This document shows positions 1,746-7,405 of a stretch of 29,092 nt of DNA, in pieces (position 1 is the first letter of the stretch; each line of letters opens with the position of its first letter). The DNA is taken from IMG/VR virus record IMGVR_UViG_3300036822_000063, positions 1 through 29,092 of that record. One strand, given 5' to 3'. The notes under the pieces were generated by a model that ran no database searches, was not told the origin of the DNA, and saw nothing but the letters and a program-made list of their open reading frames with translations. Both the position numbers and the translations under genes were made by a program. This DNA comes from a virus.

Positions 1746-2837
1746 TCATTCCGCGGCCTCCAGCTGTGCCGCGCCCCAGGCCAGCAGCGGCGCGTCGTCC
1801 ACCACGCGGGCATCAGCCATGGCGCCATACGCATCCGACAGCTCGATGCCGATCGCGTCGCGCTGCAGCCGGTCAGCCACGAGCAGCGTCGTGCCGGCAC
1901 CAGCGAACGGGTCCAGCACGGTACCGCCCGGCGGGCAGCCGGCTCGGATCAGCGGCTCGACCAGCTTCGGTGGGAATGTGGCGAAGTGCGCGGCCGAGAA
2001 CGCAGCCGGGTTCACGTCCAGCGCCAGCGGTGAGCCGTCCGCGTCACATATCAGGCCCAGGGGTTCGGGCGATGGCCCACGATCGGCGACGGGCGCCAGT
2101 TGCTCCTGGTACTCCGCCGACGTGCGCCCGTTGCGATGCACCGTGCCGTGCGCGCCGTCTCCCGTGTCCCAGCCGCCCGGTATCTTGACGCGGCGCATCC
2201 GTGGTGTCGGCTCTGGCGCGTCCTCCAGACTGTCGTAAAACAGGTCGCTGTTGCGCATGTTGCGGGAGCCGCCGTCGCCCGGTGTAACCGTTGAAGAGGC
2301 GCGCATTGGCGCAACCCCGACAGCGCGTCCCCATATCTTCGCGCCCTCAGTCGAGCTAAAGCCGTATTGCGCGCTCCGCTTCACCGCCTCGGCATCCCAG
2401 AAATACCGCGCGCTCTTGGTCAGCAGGAACACGTACTCCACGGCACTAGCCGGCCGATCGGTGACGCTCTCCGGCATCGCGCTGCGCTTCAGCCACGGCA
2501 GCATACTACGCAGCCACCATCCGTCGGCCTGCAACGCCAGCGCAAGCCGCGCCGGCATCATCTGCAACTGCTTGTTGGAGTAGGCATCACCCATGTTGCA
2601 GAACATTACGCCGTCGTTTCTAAGGACGCGCTTCACCTCGCGGAACACTGCAACCATCGTGGCGAGGTAGGCATCGGGACTGCTCTCGCTCCCTATCTCA
2701 CGCGCCTTGTCGGGATGATCGGCGTGTAGATACGAGCGTAAATTCCAGTACGGTGGCGAGGTTATGCACGCGTGAACCGACGCATCCGGCAGCGTCCTGA
2801 GTAAATCCCTACAGTCACCATGAAGAAGCTTAATCAT
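1746..2837 (-). CDS. Site-specific DNA methyltransferase (beta class, SPPY motif)
   Basis: An amino-methyltransferase that transfers a methyl group from S-adenosylmethionine to adenine N6 or cytosine N4 in DNA. The catalytic motif TSPPYW is at residues 26-31, and the SAM-binding motif LDPFAGAGTT is near residue 310 of 363. This catalytic-before-SAM order is the beta-class order. SPPY(W/F) enzymes include both N4-cytosine and N6-adenine types, so the target base cannot be called. I start at ATG 2837 (MIKLLHGDCRD), which overlaps the HNH stop codon by 8 bases; the longer frame to 2867 would add ten residues read from HNH coding sequence. The N-terminal IKLLxGDCR is repeated at 3546-3517, upstream of the HNH gene, showing that the HNH gene sits at the methyltransferase 5' end. 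Confidence 0.9.
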   Translation of the reverse strand: MIKLLHGDCRDLLRTLPDASVHACITSPPYWNLRSYLHADHPDKAREIGSESSPDAYLATMVAVFREVKRVLRNDGVMFCNMGDAYSNKQLQMMPARLALALQADGWWLRSMLPWLKRSAMPESVTDRPASAVEYVFLLTKSARYFWDAEAVKRSAQYGFSSTEGAKIWGRAVGVAPMRASSTVTPGDGGSRNMRNSDLFYDSLEDAPEPTPRMRRVKIPGGWDTGDGAHGTVHRNGRTSAEYQEQLAPVADRGPSPEPLGLICDADGSPLALDVNPAAFSAAHFATFPPKLVEPLIRAGCPPGGTVLDPFAGAGTTLLVADRLQRDAIGIELSDAYGAMADARVVDDAPLLAWGAAQLEAAE

Positions 2838-3471
2838 TCCACACCACGCGGAATGGCAGGGGGCCATGCTTCAATTCAAGTGCATGAACCGCGTTGCACG
2901 GCTTACACAGCAACTCAAGGTCATCGACGCCACGCTTGAGTTGGGAAATGCTGGAGTAGAATGCCGAGCCTCTGCCGTTCTTGAGGTCTTTCGCGCCTCC
3001 TCCCTCTTTATGATTGATTTCCAAGAGCGCAGGGTTATCACAACCACATCGTACGCAACTCACCACGCCGTTGCCTACCAGGAGCAGAACAGACTTACGC
3101 TTGTTTCTTGTGCTCAGGGTCGATCTATCTTTGGCGGGGACGAAGCCGACCGGGCTACTCCATCCATCTGCCGGCTTACGAAGCCTAACGTCCTTTGGCT
3201 TGCCGCAATGTGGGCACTTTTCCGTATACAACCCGGTCGCCGGCCTCCAAACCCACCAGCACGATCGACAGGTAGCAACTTGCCTGATCCTTTGCGGCAT
3301 CATCGCCATACGGACGGTCTTGCGCGCCTCCATGACCGCCGCAGCAACCGGGCGGCCTTTGGCAACCGCCGCGCGGCACTCGATGGAACAGTATTTTACC
3401 TTCAGTCCGCGCCGCATGACTGGAGAGCCACAAGATTGGCACGGATAGCGTTCACGTTTTATTTTAGGCAT
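2830..3471 (-). CDS. HNH homing endonuclease with N-terminal zinc fingers
   Basis: A free-standing HNH endonuclease, expected to cut a cognate site and drive its own copying. From ATG 3471 (MPKIKR) the protein has 213 aa: two Cys4 zinc-finger-like pairs (C11/C14/C28/C32 and C68/C71/C86/C89), then an HNH core with CVRCG at 138-142, EINHKEGGG at 151-159 and LLCKPCN at 187-193. The frame is open upstream to 3681 and in frame with a methyltransferase-like N-terminus starting at 3546. A start at 3546 would therefore make a 238-aa fusion. The start codon lies in a 7-bp hairpin (3470-3489). Codons here are more AT-rich than in its neighbours, consistent with recent transfer. Confidence 0.85.
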   Translation of the reverse strand: MPKIKRERYPCQSCGSPVMRRGLKVKYCSIECRAAVAKGRPVAAAVMEARKTVRMAMMPQRIRQVATCRSCWWVWRPATGLYTEKCPHCGKPKDVRLRKPADGWSSPVGFVPAKDRSTLSTRNKRKSVLLLVGNGVVSCVRCGCDNPALLEINHKEGGGAKDLKNGRGSAFYSSISQLKRGVDDLELLCKPCNAVHALELKHGPLPFRVVWND

Positions 3472-3875: not shown

Positions 3876-4528
3876 GACGGCGAGCCTCCGGTCCAGGCGA
3901 ACAGGTCGTACTGCTCCGGCCGGTGCCGCGGTCGACGCAGCGACGGCGGCTTTTCCCAGATGCGGAACTTGGCACCCATTGCTTGCGCTATCGCGATGAT
4001 GTCCTCGGGAGGATTAGGCAGATCGCCGAGCACATCGAAAGCTTCGACAGCCCACACCACCGCGCCGCGCGGAAACGCCTCAGCCTCAAACCGCATCGGC
4101 TCACGCTCGCGCAGGATCTCAACCGTCTGCCATAATAGTTTCGGCGCTATGTCGGGCGACGAACGCAGCGGCCAGTGTAGATGCACAAGCGCCAGATCCA
4201 CCGGCACGCCGCTACCGTTGATCTGGCAGCAGGCCTGCCAGTCAGGCCAGTCCATCCCGGTGCAGTCGATCTGGTCTTTCATGTAGCGATAGGCGCCGCG
4301 CTTGGCCTTGACCTGCAGCAGCCGGGACTTACGGCCGCGGATCAGGTCAAAGAGTTGCAGGTCCGGCATGACGACCCTATGGCCATCCGGGCCGCTCACC
4401 ATGGTGGCGCCGTCGCCAATCTCCGAGGTGTGCAGCACATGCCAGCCGTGGTGCATGGCGCGGGCTGCCACATGCTGCTCGGCCCACAGGCCGACGATAG
4501 CTTGGGACGATTGCCTGACGTATGCCAT
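3872..4528 (-). CDS. Putative PD-(D/E)XK-superfamily nuclease, 218 aa
   Basis: The segment MPDLQLFDLIRGRKSRLLQV followed by KAK has the layout of a PD-(D/E)XK active site: PD at residues 55-56 and QVK at 72-74, with Q in place of the usual D or E. It would act on DNA, for example as a restriction-like or Holliday-junction-type nuclease, but the substrate is unknown. ATG 4528 overlaps the upstream methyltransferase stop as TGATG; a GTG at 4531 is the alternative. Its position next to an N6-adenine methyltransferase could mean a restriction-modification-like pair. I rate that only as a possibility, because phage operons often place such genes side by side. Confidence 0.55.
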   Translation of the reverse strand: MAYVRQSSQAIVGLWAEQHVAARAMHHGWHVLHTSEIGDGATMVSGPDGHRVVMPDLQLFDLIRGRKSRLLQVKAKRGAYRYMKDQIDCTGMDWPDWQACCQINGSGVPVDLALVHLHWPLRSSPDIAPKLLWQTVEILREREPMRFEAEAFPRGAVVWAVEAFDVLGDLPNPPEDIIAIAQAMGAKFRIWEKPPSLRRPRHRPEQYDLFAWTGGSPS

Positions 4529-5415
4529 CACACCGGCCCAACAACGAACCCGAAGGCACCGAAGATGATAGCGAAGCGGTCGGCATCCGCGCCGAAATAG
4601 AAAAACGTCTGGCCCTGCAGAGGCGACTCTCCAGAGGGACGCTGCGGATTAGCAAACCGAATGCGGCCGAGCGTAAAGCACATCCGGGTCACGCCGCGGA
4701 CGGCGCTATGAAACCAACCCGTGTCGGTGCAGTTATTGGTGACCATGATGGCCTGCGAAACATGGCCGGCGACGTGCTCCTCAGTCAGCTTGGTGATGAA
4801 TTGGCCAATGAGTGGTTGCGAGTAAGGCGGGTTGAGCCACACGCGCCCGTGCCATGACAGCGCGAGGCCATCATCCTGCGCGGTGTAATACTGCGCCGCC
4901 TGCACCGTCTGCTGCGCTTGCTCGGAAGTCGCCGGGTCCAGGTCAATTCCACCCATGACTTCGCGCGCCGCGGCGATATATTCAGCCGGTGTATACCATT
5001 CATATTCGCCAGTGTTGGGACTGACGCGGTTAGGTTCTGGCTCAAGTTCGGCCTTGCGGCGGGCAGCAATGGCTACTCGCTCGCGATAGGTGTCCAAGTT
5101 TCGATGAGCGCCACGCCATCTTGATAACCGGCTGTCGCTGAAGCCAATCCTCTGCTGAGCTTCTCGGTTGGAAACCTTCCCAGGATCGCGGGAAGGTTGG
5201 TCGCCAGGCCGGCCGCCTTCCCGCACATTGTCACGCCACCATTGCAGGATGACTTTCTGACATTCGATCAAGAAGTCGATGGCTTTGTCTAAGTCCTCCC
5301 ACCGCTCCAGCGCGGCAGCAGCGGCAATGACGGCCTCGATGCGATGGACCGTTTCGCCCATCAAATGTGGCGCATTATAGAGGTCGCGCGGGTCAAGTGT
5401 GCTCAGGTCACTCAT
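4528..5415 (-). CDS. Phage DNA N-6-adenine-methyltransferase (Dam family of phages)
   Basis: Methylates adenine in DNA, probably to protect phage DNA or alter host regulation. The hallmark series is present: EWYTP at 139-143, GIDLDPAT at 156-163, DDGL near 181 and the catalytic NPPY at 195-198. This order matches the phage-specific N6-adenine methyltransferase family (PF05869). The N-terminal roughly 130 residues hold helical, Arg-rich sequence of unknown role. ATG 5415 overlaps the VRR-NUC stop as ATGA. The recognition site cannot be read from sequence; it is not of the CcrM type. Confidence 0.92.
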   Translation of the reverse strand: MSDLSTLDPRDLYNAPHLMGETVHRIEAVIAAAAALERWEDLDKAIDFLIECQKVILQWWRDNVREGGRPGDQPSRDPGKVSNREAQQRIGFSDSRLSRWRGAHRNLDTYRERVAIAARRKAELEPEPNRVSPNTGEYEWYTPAEYIAAAREVMGGIDLDPATSEQAQQTVQAAQYYTAQDDGLALSWHGRVWLNPPYSQPLIGQFITKLTEEHVAGHVSQAIMVTNNCTDTGWFHSAVRGVTRMCFTLGRIRFANPQRPSGESPLQGQTFFYFGADADRFAIIFGAFGFVVGPV

Positions 5416-5813
5416 GCTGCCACCCGACCGCGCAAAGGAATGCCCGCCGCAGCCACTGCATCGAGCGCCTGCTCGACGGTGCGAGCGATCGCCACCGGAA
5501 AGCCAGCGTCAGCCAAGCGTGGGTGTAACTCGCGCTGCGCATCCGACAGCCGTCCGTCACGCGAGCGCTTCAACTCGATCAGCACGAGATGGTGGCGCCA
5601 GAACACGCCACAGTCGGGCCAACCAGGCAGCGCGCCTAGACGCTTGCGACGCGCACCCTCGGCGGCTGAGCTGGCGTTGCGCAACTCCCAGGTGTTGAAC
5701 ACCGCATCGGGCGGCAACAGCACGCGCATCGCATGCCATACGGCCTGGTGCAGCTCGTCCTCTGGCGGCACATAGGCTCGCAGCCGGAAGGGTGCCGAGA
5801 CCTCGCTCACCAC
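5412..5813 (-). CDS. VRR-NUC domain nuclease
   Basis: A compact PD-(D/E)XK nuclease of the VRR-NUC family, often found beside phage replication genes and thought to act on branched or structured DNA. Motifs: PGWPD at 63-67, the catalytic IELK at 79-82 and Q93 in the following helix. Its length, 133 aa, is usual for stand-alone phage VRR-NUC proteins. The start is GTG 5813 or 5810, overlapping the GcrA stop; its own stop overlaps the next gene's ATG. Confidence 0.85.
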   Translation of the reverse strand: MVSEVSAPFRLRAYVPPEDELHQAVWHAMRVLLPPDAVFNTWELRNASSAAEGARRKRLGALPGWPDCGVFWRHHLVLIELKRSRDGRLSDAQRELHPRLADAGFPVAIARTVEQALDAVAAAGIPLRGRVAA

Positions 5814-6307
5814 CGGATCCCATGCTCAGCGGCGCCAGCATGCGGCCGGCGCACGAACGCCACCGCCCGGTGCGCCTCGCAGTACGGCCCCGTGCCGGGC
5901 ACAGGAGCGTCGCAGAACCGCCAGTCGCCACGGTGCCCCTCCGGCCATTGGCAGCGGCTGAAAGTCGCTGTGGGCACGCCCAGCGCCAGCGGCTGGCACG
6001 GTACTGCCGCCGGCTTCTCGCCATACGGGTCCGCCGGCTTGCGGCGCGGCTTGCCCGCTCCGCTGGGCCGGTGATGCGGCTTGTCCGGCACGCGCTCCGC
6101 AGCCTCGCGCACCTCCGTGACGTACTGCCCGATCGGCGATGGCCTGGGCGGCCAGCCCTGCCGGTGCGCCTTGCCCACGATGCTGCTCTTGGTGCAGCCG
6201 TGGCCGATCCGCGCGGCGATCTGGCCCGCGCTTACGCCCTCGTCCCACAGCGCGCGGGCCCGCTCCAGGCGGCCGTCCAGCATCCAGCGGGGCGTCTCGA
6301 CGCTCAT
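5807..6307 (-). CDS. gcrA-like: GcrA-family cell-cycle regulator homologue
   Basis: GcrA is an alphaproteobacterial transcription factor that binds sigma70-RNA polymerase and acts at promoters carrying GANTC sites methylated by CcrM. This 166-aa protein has the N-terminal helix-turn-helix block (ERARALWDEGVSAGQIAARI, then GKAHRQGW) and the C-terminal Cys/His block (CQWPEGHRGDWRFC, then YCEAH), the two conserved ends of the family. The middle is Pro/Lys/Arg-rich. It sits second in the early operon after the Cro-like gene, the place lambda gives to cII. A cluster of five GANTC sites directly precedes its start, suggesting self-control by methylation. The start ATG 6307 has only a weak ribosome-binding site. 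Confidence 0.88.
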   Translation of the reverse strand: MSVETPRWMLDGRLERARALWDEGVSAGQIAARIGHGCTKSSIVGKAHRQGWPPRPSPIGQYVTEVREAAERVPDKPHHRPSGAGKPRRKPADPYGEKPAAVPCQPLALGVPTATFSRCQWPEGHRGDWRFCDAPVPGTGPYCEAHRAVAFVRRPHAGAAEHGIRW

Positions 6308-6309
6308 TT

Positions 6310-6360
6310 GAGTCCGACTCGCATCGAGTCTTGCGCCGTGGGATTCGCTCGCATAGAATC
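6310..6360. promoter_or_regulatory. Cluster of five GANTC sites upstream of gcrA-like gene
   Basis: GANTC occurs at 6310-6314, 6316-6320, 6326-6330, 6342-6346 and 6356-6360. The sites also pair as inverted repeats: GACTCG-cat-CGAGTC, and GATTC-N9-GAATC. GANTC is the CcrM methylation site and the GcrA recognition element in alphaproteobacteria. The position 3-53 bases before the GcrA-like start codon points to an epigenetic, probably autoregulated, promoter or operator. Confidence 0.7.
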
Positions 6361-6387
6361 TCGGACCATGGCGACGTATCTCCCCGG

Positions 6388-6405
6388 CCGCGTCCCCCGA
6401 CGCGG
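6388..6405 (-). terminator. Terminator-like GC hairpin between cro-like and gcrA-like genes
   Basis: CCGCGTC-N4-GACGCGG is a perfect 7-bp all-strong stem with a 4-base loop, in the 173-base gap after the Cro-like stop. No U-tract follows on the minus strand, so it would need Rho or act as a pause site. The layout cro, hairpin, activator resembles lambda cro, tR1, cII. Confidence 0.4.
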
Positions 6406-6480
6406 ATCTGACGCGTTACTGACGCTGCGGTGTCATGGCGGAATGCGTGGCTCGGACGATGGCGCGCGCGGACATCGGCG

Positions 6481-6690
6481 CTACGCCGCTTCTGCGTGGT
6501 CGCGGGCGGGATACAGATCGGGCCGCAGGTCGCGCGGCGATACACCCAGGATAGCGGCGGCCTGGACGACGCGCTCACGGGGCACGCGCTCCCACTGCGA
6601 CACCGCAGCCGTCGAGATGCCGAGGCCCTCAGCTAGCCGCTTCGTCGCCCCCCGGATCTGCATGAGGCGGTCTAGGCATTGATCACGCAT
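6481..6690 (-). CDS. Cro/YdaS-like HTH regulator, 69 aa
   Basis: A small DNA-binding repressor at the head of the early minus operon. The helix-turn-helix covers about residues 13-37 (RGATKRLAEGLGISTAAVSQ then WE), followed by RVVQAAAILGVSPRDLRPDL, which matches YdaS/Cro-type proteins. It diverges from the XRE repressor across an 87-base gap holding the operators. ATG 6690 has no good ribosome-binding site, and the best promoter would start transcription almost at the ATG, so the message may be leaderless. By position it should repress the repressor gene in lytic growth. Confidence 0.82.
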   Translation of the reverse strand: MRDQCLDRLMQIRGATKRLAEGLGISTAAVSQWERVPRERVVQAAAILGVSPRDLRPDLYPARDHAEAA

Positions 6691-6696
6691 CCCGCA

Positions 6697-6725
6697 TGCT
6701 TAGTAGCATTAAGCGCCAAGCGCAA
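6697..6725 (-). promoter_or_regulatory. pR-like promoter for the early minus operon
   Basis: On the minus strand TTGCGC (6725-6720) and TAAGCA (6702-6697) are separated by 17 bases. The -10 overlaps the outer half-site of the operator at 6698-6714, so a bound repressor would block it. Predicted from sequence only. Confidence 0.4.
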
Positions 6726-6748
6726 GCCTGTCGCTAAGCATTTGCTTA
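6698..6748. promoter_or_regulatory. Right operator set (GCTTA/TAAGC repeats)
   Basis: Two inverted repeats: GCTTA-N7-TAAGC at 6698-6714 and TAAGC-N4-GCTTA at 6735-6748, the latter extending to a 14-base palindrome TAAGCATTTGCTTA. They lie between the divergent Cro-like and XRE genes. The same two designs recur on the far side of the repressor gene, in mirrored order. Confidence 0.7.
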
Positions 6749-6777
6749 CTGCCGATAACCCGCAGAAGGCCCACTGT

Positions 6778-7164
6778 GTGGACGTGAACATAGCCGACAA
6801 AATTCGGGCAGCCCGCACAAAGGCCGGCCTGACGCAACGCGCCCTCGCCGCCCTTCTTGGCGTCGATAAAAGTGCTGTCGCTCAGTGGGAAGGTGGTGGT
6901 GGTGGTGTAGGCATCAAAACGGCAAATCTTGTGGAATTAGCTAGAGTTCTCGGCATAAAGCCGTCTGAATTACTTGGCGAGGCGACGCCGGCGGATCGGC
7001 TAATTCTTGAGGACATCGACGAGATTACGCTCGTCACCCTCTACCGCAGATTACCGAAACGACTCCGGGACATTCATCGACAGATGCTGTTCGTCCAGAC
7101 CGACCCCGGACAACACTCGGAGCTCGCTGGCCACCCTACGGATCGTCACGAGGTCGCCGCCTGA
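6778..7164 (+). CDS. XRE-family repressor (CI-like), 128 aa
   Basis: Probable immunity repressor. The helix-turn-helix occupies about residues 5-60: ADKIRAARTKAGLTQ, then ALAALLGVDKSAVAQWE, then a helix containing LVELARVLGIKPSELLGE. There is no S24/LexA-like peptidase domain, so SOS cleavage as in lambda CI is not expected. The start is taken as GTG 6778 with AAGG 8 bases upstream; GTG 6784 is an alternative. The frame is open back to 6679, but that part crosses the operators. Between the HTH and the next helix lies a run of five Gly from GGT repeats, which is unusual for this fold. Operators flank the gene on both sides. Confidence 0.85.
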   Translation: MDVNIADKIRAARTKAGLTQRALAALLGVDKSAVAQWEGGGGGVGIKTANLVELARVLGIKPSELLGEATPADRLILEDIDEITLVTLYRRLPKRLRDIHRQMLFVQTDPGQHSELAGHPTDRHEVAA

Positions 7165-7172
7165 CGGTCCGC

Positions 7173-7234
7173 TAAGCACGTCGCTTAACTCCGCTAATCT
7201 TTTCGCTGGACTCGCTCGCTTAGTTGGGCTAAGC
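7173..7234. promoter_or_regulatory. Left operator set (GCTTA/TAAGC repeats)
   Basis: TAAGC-N5-GCTTA at 7173-7187 and GCTTA-N7-TAAGC at 7218-7234, with one more half-site-like GCTAA near 7192. The order mirrors the set at 6698-6748, with the N7 element outermost in both. This is what one expects of a second repressor-binding region controlling the + early operon. Confidence 0.7.
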
Positions 7235-7235
7235 A
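7207..7235 (+). promoter_or_regulatory. pL-like promoter for the early plus operon
   Basis: TGGACT (7207-7212), 17 bases, then TAAGCA (7230-7235). The -10 overlaps the outer operator half-site exactly as in the pR-like promoter. Both promoters read TAAGCATGC at this point. The -35 is only 4/6 to consensus, so confidence is modest. Confidence 0.4.
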
Positions 7236-7405
7236 TGCCCTCGTCATTCGACGAAGGGCTTGACTGACCATGTTCGAGATAATCCAGAACGGCAGCCGAG
7301 AAGGCTTCGAGCGCACCAGGCACGTGCCAATCGGGTCGTTCGGCTCTGATGGTTGCGGCACCAACGGTAATAACGGGACGGCTCACAACGACCTCCCTGC
7401 AGTAG

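What the first reader, a model, noticed from the sequence alone, without database searches (positions are those of the whole stretch)
6310..6360. Five GANTC sites in 51 bp in front of a phage GcrA homologue
GANTC should occur by chance far less than once in 51 bases. Here five lie 3-53 bases before the gcrA-like start, also arranged as inverted repeats. GcrA of alphaproteobacteria reads methylated GANTC. The phage may sense the host's CcrM methylation state, that is cell-cycle stage or newly replicated hemimethylated phage DNA, to control its own early operon in the place lambda uses cII. This would be a methylation-timed lysis/lysogeny or replication switch.
Basis: partly seen in the sequence, partly recalled or inferred. 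Interest (0 to 1): 0.8.

Follow-up and report, generated by a model that had tools for sequence, protein, structure and literature searches.

The report
Methylation-site cluster before phage gcrA gene
A bacterial virus that otherwise avoids the DNA sequence its likely host marks with methyl groups packs five such sites right in front of its copy of a host cell-cycle gene; a sibling virus keeps all five, which suggests the virus reads the host's methylation to time this gene, although no experiment has shown that yet.

Summary
Five GANTC sites lie at 6310-6360 directly before a real GcrA homologue (5807-6307, minus strand). The rest of the phage is depleted in GANTC (27 in 29 kb; 63-96 expected), and no other region in 1.8 Mb of fetched DNA matches the cluster's density.

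The strongest evidence is comparative. A sibling phage (L276) has the same five sites at identical spacing. None of the 20 fixed G-A-T-C bases changed, although gcrA itself is only 65% identical in DNA. Differences fall on the N position or between sites, so the overlapping peptide and the repeat core are not what is kept. Two more relatives with gcrA directly after cro have 2-3 sites in that leader; four with another gene in between have 0-1. Phage gcrA genes in general show no enrichment.

Cellular gcrA promoters are enriched too (69 genomes, 5.2 versus 2.7 sites per kb). In Agrobacterium six GANTC precede gcrA and its promoter is methylation-repressed (PMC11514494).

Best reading: a CcrM-methylation-sensitive cis element controlling the phage's gcrA and the genes behind it, a phage version of a known host arrangement. 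Binding, methylation state, direction of control and any lysis/lysogeny role are untested.

The parts
6310..6360 (.). Array of five GANTC (CcrM-type) sites at 6310, 6316, 6326, 6342, 6356
   Evidence: same five sites at identical spacing in sibling phage L276 11889-11939
6342..6371 (-). Tandem unit 1: CCATGGTCCGAGATTCTATGCGAGCGAATC, two GANTC
   Evidence: direct repeat, start-to-start spacing 30, 75% identity; unit comparison
6310..6341 (-). Tandem unit 2: CCACGGCGCAAGACTCGATGCGAGTCGGACTC, three GANTC (two extra bases create the extra site)
   Evidence: identical in L276
5807..6307 (-). GcrA homologue, 166 aa, methyl-DNA-binding-type HTH plus sigma-interacting-type C-terminal domain
   Evidence: PF07750 58.2 bits vs cutoff 26.9; best PDB hit GcrA 7ye1 E=5e-10; model matches 5yiv rmsd 1.1 A and 5yix rmsd 1.4 A
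6304..6369 (-). Possible 21-aa leader ORF (MVRDSMRANPTAQDSMRVGLK*) with a GGGGAG Shine-Dalgarno; its TGA overlaps the gcrA ATG (ATGA); it spans the array
   Evidence: start, length and stop kept in L276 but the peptide is not
6308..6480 (-). cro-gcrA leader region; contains the block GTAACGCGTCAG (6408-6419) and a CCGCGTC-GGGG-GACGCGG inverted repeat before the Shine-Dalgarno
6481..6690 (-). Cro-like HTH protein, first gene of the left-facing operon
   Evidence: P22_Cro 32.6 bits, YdaS 33.4 bits; phrog transcriptional repressors
6784..7164 (+). Short CI-like XRE repressor, divergent from cro, no peptidase domain found
   Evidence: HTH_3 E=1e-11; phrog_4 repressor; GTG start
5412..5813 (-). VRR-NUC-like nuclease, next gene of the gcrA operon
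   Evidence: phrog_824 E=8e-21, phrog_5702
4528..5415 (-). Dam-type phage adenine methyltransferase in the same operon
   Evidence: PF05869 66.8 bits; TIGR01712 below its cutoff
1746..2867 (-). PF01555 DNA methyltransferase with TSPPYW motif; not a CcrM equivalog
   Evidence: CcrM equivalog 73 bits, cutoff 830

Best explanation
The 6310-6360 array is a cis-regulatory element made of CcrM methylation sites, kept by selection, that makes expression of the phage gcrA gene (and the early genes behind it) depend on GANTC methylation. Shown: the cluster, its rarity, its site-by-site conservation in a sibling phage, the GcrA nature of the gene, and a parallel enrichment before cellular gcrA genes. 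Inferred: the host is a CcrM-bearing alphaproteobacterium; the sites are methylated by host CcrM; full methylation, as expected in a resident prophage, holds gcrA expression down (as for the Agrobacterium gcrA promoter) or makes it dependent on GcrA; and replication, leaving hemi- or unmethylated copies, changes that state. I put about 60% on 'methylation-sensitive control element for gcrA' and about 35% on the specific direction 'methylated = low'.
For: Cluster and depletion. Sibling L276 has 5/5 sites at identical spacing, 0/20 fixed bases changed, 1/5 N changed and 6/38 other bases changed; DNA identity is 65% in gcrA, 75% in the upstream leader and 89% in the array. Between the two tandem units: 0/8 fixed, 2/2 N, 6/20 other changed; pooled P=0.003, comparisons not fully independent. 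All four phages with gcrA directly after the cro leader have an excess of leader sites: 5, 5, 3 and 2 (P 3e-7, 8e-8, 0.003, 0.02), against 0-1 in four with a gene in between. 69 cellular gcrA upstream regions: 5.16 GANTC/kb vs 2.69 in other noncoding DNA, P=5e-6. A. tumefaciens: six GANTC in the 250 bp before gcrA, promoter less active when CcrM-methylated, also in E. coli (PMC11514494). GcrA fold and domains.
Against: Host, methylation state and transcription start are unknown. No sigma70-like promoter was found in the leader. The sites are only 3-53 bp from the start codon, closer than in most cellular gcrA genes (mostly 60-150 bp upstream), and sit inside a possible leader ORF. Only 2 of 5 sites fit the YGAKTCK context associated with GcrA activation, about chance. 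Phage gcrA genes as a class lack significant enrichment. The full five-site form is seen in only two phages, and the statistical support for purifying selection is modest.
Confidence: 0.6

Rival explanations
1. Phage GcrA autoregulation: the phage protein itself binds the methylated array and recruits sigma70-RNA polymerase (or blocks it), giving a feedback loop on its own operon. This is a sub-version of the best explanation with a phage reader.
For: The array sits next to the gene for a GcrA with both a DBD-like and a sigma-interacting-like domain; C. crescentus GcrA covers about 40 nt of fully methylated ctrAP1 (PMC3667746), about the length of this array.
Against: The phage GcrA recognition helix differs between the siblings (TKSSIVGKAHRQGW vs TPDAIIGKARRQHW) and more in other relatives while the sites do not change; only 2/5 sites fit YGAKTCK; no promoter-like element.
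Confidence: 0.3
2. The array is a set of direct/inverted repeats for some other phage DNA-binding protein (Cro, CI or a replication initiator), and GANTC is incidental.
For: 30-bp tandem repeat with inverted repeats; lies in the early regulatory region.
Against: In L276 the shared core ATGCGAG of unit 1 is lost while GANTC is kept. The putative CI/Cro operators carry a different sequence (CTAAGC/GCTTAG) at 6700-6760 and 7168-7240. Changes fall on N, not on fixed bases.
Confidence: 0.12
3. The sequence is kept because it encodes a leader peptide coupled to gcrA translation, not for its DNA sites.
For: ORF 6369-6304 with good Shine-Dalgarno and ATGA overlap with gcrA; same start, length and stop in L276.
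Against: Peptide changes are mostly non-synonymous (RDSMRA to RESTGP) while the GANTC sites are kept. Translation coupling and DNA sites could co-exist.
Confidence: 0.08
4. Chance plus tandem duplication: a two-site element happened to duplicate and has no function.
For: The five sites sit in two tandem copies, so independent events are fewer than five.
Against: Depleted background, all five sites conserved in a divergent sibling, 2-3 sites in the same leader of two further relatives.
Confidence: 0.12
5. A methylation-controlled replication origin (as with GATC clusters at E. coli oriC or the P1 origin, from general knowledge) rather than a transcriptional element.
For: Several methylation sites in a short repeat-bearing stretch near the cumulative GC-skew minimum.
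Against: No AT-rich stretch or series of iterons; only two repeat copies; the array sits in the leader of gcrA, where cellular genomes also have excess sites.
Confidence: 0.04

Closest known systems
Agrobacterium tumefaciens gcrA promoter PG (PMC11514494)
   Same: Six GANTC in the 250 bp before gcrA: a dense CcrM-site cluster in front of the same gene family
   Different: Host chromosomal gene; sites spread over 250 bp rather than 51; promoter repression by methylation was measured there and is only inferred here
Caulobacter GcrA/CcrM methylated promoters (ctrAP1, mipZ; PMC3667746)
   Same: GANTC sites at promoters bound by GcrA in a methylation-dependent way
   Different: One or two sites at those promoters; methylation-dependent GcrA binding demonstrated; not phage
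phiCbK-like phage GcrA (PMC3556154)
   Same: Phage-borne GcrA homologue of family PF07750
   Different: Large siphophages of Caulobacter; no GANTC array reported in the passages read; PMC9437464 found no asymmetry of GcrA sites in alphaproteobacterial phage genomes
lambda cro-cII early operon
   Same: Regulatory gene placed right after cro and before other early genes
   Different: GcrA is unrelated to CII; no lysogeny role shown; the CI-like protein here is short
GANTC-depleted pelagiphages (PMC9516812)
   Same: Phages of GANTC-methylating alphaproteobacteria with GANTC depletion
   Different: No retained GANTC cluster described in the passages read

Membership tests
GcrA family (PF07750) | Match to the Pfam profile above its curated cut-off | tested here: met
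   58.2 bits vs 26.9
GcrA family (PF07750) | N-terminal methyl-DNA-binding-type HTH fold | tested here: met
   Model aligns with 5yiv, rmsd 1.1 A over 41 columns, 44% identity
GcrA family (PF07750) | C-terminal sigma-interacting domain | tested here: met
   Model aligns with 5yix_B, rmsd 1.4 A over 37 columns; fold only, binding to sigma70 not tested
GcrA cell-cycle equivalog (NF050816) | Score over the equivalog cut-off | tested here: not met
   52 bits vs 280; so not claimed as the cell-cycle GcrA itself
CcrM/GcrA-controlled methylation-sensitive promoter | GANTC sites in the upstream region, denser than background | tested here: met
   5 in a 173-bp leader, 0.13 expected
CcrM/GcrA-controlled methylation-sensitive promoter | Sites conserved in relatives beyond the surrounding sequence | tested here: met
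   L276: 0/20 fixed bases changed; borderline alone (P=0.058), pooled P=0.003
CcrM/GcrA-controlled methylation-sensitive promoter | Extended context YGAKTCK | tested here: inconclusive
   2 of 5 sites, about chance; no extended preference was seen in Brevundimonas (PMC7987155)
CcrM/GcrA-controlled methylation-sensitive promoter | Recognisable sigma70 -10/-35 with GANTC near them | tested here: inconclusive
   No consensus promoter in 6200-7300; the scan does not model GC-rich alphaproteobacterial promoters
CcrM/GcrA-controlled methylation-sensitive promoter | Methylation changes activity or binding | not testable with these tools
   Needs methylation data, binding assays or reporters
CcrM DNA methyltransferase (phage-encoded) | A CcrM equivalog in the window, so the phage could set its own GANTC marks | tested here: not met
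   1746-2867 scores 73 bits vs 830 and has TSPPYW

The most novel reading that the evidence does not exclude
A temperate phage carries a methylation-reading switch: host CcrM marks on a five-site array tell the phage whether its DNA is a quiet, fully methylated prophage or freshly replicated, and through its own GcrA this sets the early operon and the lysis/lysogeny or replication decision.
Probability: 0.25. Interest if true: 0.85.

Novelty: new variant of a known kind. Interest (0 to 1): 0.6.

Why it matters
Phage GcrA homologues have been known since the phiCbK genomes, with only speculation about their use. Here is a concrete, short DNA element that links a phage gcrA to host CcrM methylation, with a host precedent and defined mutations to test. 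If it works as proposed, it would be a phage regulatory decision timed by host epigenetic marks. It also suggests that GANTC clusters before gcrA are a recurring trait across Alphaproteobacteria, not only in Agrobacterium.

Tried and rejected
Searching phage records with P0001 and nearby DNA found nothing. IMG/VR with P0001 alone gave one false hit, L002, an MCM-type locus. The idea that all phage gcrA genes carry GANTC arrays was rejected. The fold of the leader RNA is no better than shuffles. Other dense GANTC spots: L279 is a GACTCT microsatellite, and L011 lies inside an open reading frame beside repeats. Searches for further array-bearing phages with the sibling alignment and with CI gave only L276 plus relatives without the full array. 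Papers on GcrA structure and on its sigma70 cofactor activity were not held, so DNA-contact residues could not be checked.

Full report
What is there. The window is a 29,092-base IMG/VR virus record. It looks like a temperate podovirus: an ejection-type protein, a stabilisation-type structural protein, SU10-type capsid and adaptor proteins, and Erf recombinase. Its control region has a short CI-like XRE repressor (6784-7164, +) facing away from a Cro-like protein (6481-6690, -). Downstream of cro, after a 173-bp leader, comes a GcrA homologue (5807-6307, -), then a VRR-NUC nuclease and a Dam-type methyltransferase. The GcrA assignment is firm: Pfam PF07750 at 58 bits (cut-off 26.9), best solved relative C. 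crescentus GcrA, and a predicted model whose two confident ends match the methyl-DNA-bound GcrA DNA-binding domain (rmsd 1.1 A) and the sigma-interacting domain (rmsd 1.4 A). It falls far below the cut-off of the NCBI equivalog for the cell-cycle protein.

The cluster. Five GANTC sites start at 6310, 6316, 6326, 6342 and 6356. GANTC is otherwise depleted: 27 in the window against 63 to 96 expected, depending on the model, and no simulation produced five in 51 bp. In the phage family that shares the stabilisation protein, observed/expected is typically 0.4-0.6, so depletion is a family trait, as reported for some pelagiphages (PMC9516812). The five sites are not independent: they lie in two copies of a 30-bp tandem unit.

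Conservation. A pattern scan found one sibling phage, L276 (from a 41-kb record), with the identical five-site spacing. Its GcrA is 59% identical in protein and 65% in DNA, its cro-gcrA leader 75% and its array 89% identical. In the array none of 20 fixed bases changed, one N did (GATTC to GAGTC on the gcrA strand), and 6 of 38 other bases did (P=0.058). Between the two tandem units the same pattern appears (0/8 fixed, 2/2 N, 6/20 other); pooled P is 0.003, with the caveat that the comparisons are not fully independent. The peptide of the overlapping leader ORF and the repeat core ATGCGAG of unit 1 are not conserved, so the sites are the better candidate for what is kept.

Wider comparison. 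Among nearby relatives, the four phages with gcrA directly after the cro leader have 5, 5, 3 and 2 leader sites, while four with a gene between cro and gcrA have 0-1. L180 and L182 share part of their leader, so they are not independent. Seventy-one more distant phage gcrA genes show no significant enrichment. Thus the array is a feature of this leader, not of phage gcrA in general.

Host parallel. The 160 bp before 69 cellular alphaproteobacterial gcrA genes hold 5.16 GANTC/kb, against 2.69 in other noncoding DNA of the same loci and 1.84 in coding DNA (P=5e-6 against noncoding). Seventeen have two or more sites and eight have three or more. In Agrobacterium six GANTC precede gcrA, and its promoter is less active when methylated, even in E. 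coli (PMC11514494). This is the closest known arrangement and gives the model its direction: methylated means low.

Mechanism. Most likely the array makes gcrA expression sensitive to CcrM methylation. A resident prophage would be fully methylated for much of the cell cycle; replicating phage DNA would be hemi- or unmethylated (inference). No CcrM is encoded in the window, so the marks would have to come from the host. Whether phage GcrA, host GcrA or only the polymerase senses the marks is open. The phage GcrA recognition helix differs between the two siblings while the sites do not, which favours a host reader, but which residues contact DNA could not be checked here. No promoter was recognised in the leader, and the sites lie closer to the start codon than in most cellular gcrA genes.

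Limits. The host is inferred from the family, the depletion and gcrA itself. The window is probably a fragment. No expression, binding or methylation data exist. The claim of a lysis/lysogeny switch goes beyond the evidence.

Noticed in passing
L154 and L176 (record G043, IMG/VR 3300043765_000024): No GANTC site at all in the two fetched pieces of this 39-kb relative (33 expected in L154 alone); it carries a weak GcrA-like protein whose match includes a TGA.
   Followed up: partly
L206-L275 (cellular gcrA loci): GANTC is enriched before gcrA across 69 alphaproteobacterial genomes, beyond other noncoding DNA; L219 and L257 have four sites in 160 bp. Only the Agrobacterium case was found in the literature read.
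   Followed up: partly
window 6700-6760 and 7168-7240: Repeated CTAAGC/GCTTAG half-sites on both sides of the CI-like gene, probable CI/Cro operators.
   Followed up: no
window 6784-7164: The CI-like repressor is only about 126 aa with no peptidase domain found, so SOS induction by self-cleavage is unlikely.
   Followed up: no
window 1746-2867 and 4528-5415: Two DNA methyltransferases of different types lie in the same left-facing gene series as gcrA; GATC occurs 193 times in the window, unlike the depleted GANTC.
   Followed up: no
A5 alignment, P0001 positions C119, C132, C143, H146: Three cysteines are invariant and the histidine nearly invariant across 23 phage GcrA proteins, suggesting a zinc-type site in the sigma-interacting domain.
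   Followed up: no
window 6408-6419 and the L180 and L182 leaders: Block GTAACGCGTCAG shared by the cro-gcrA leaders of several relatives, followed by an inverted repeat before a Shine-Dalgarno; function unknown.
   Followed up: partly
L279 551-573: Four GANTC in a (GACTCT)n microsatellite, a different origin from the window's array.
   Followed up: yes
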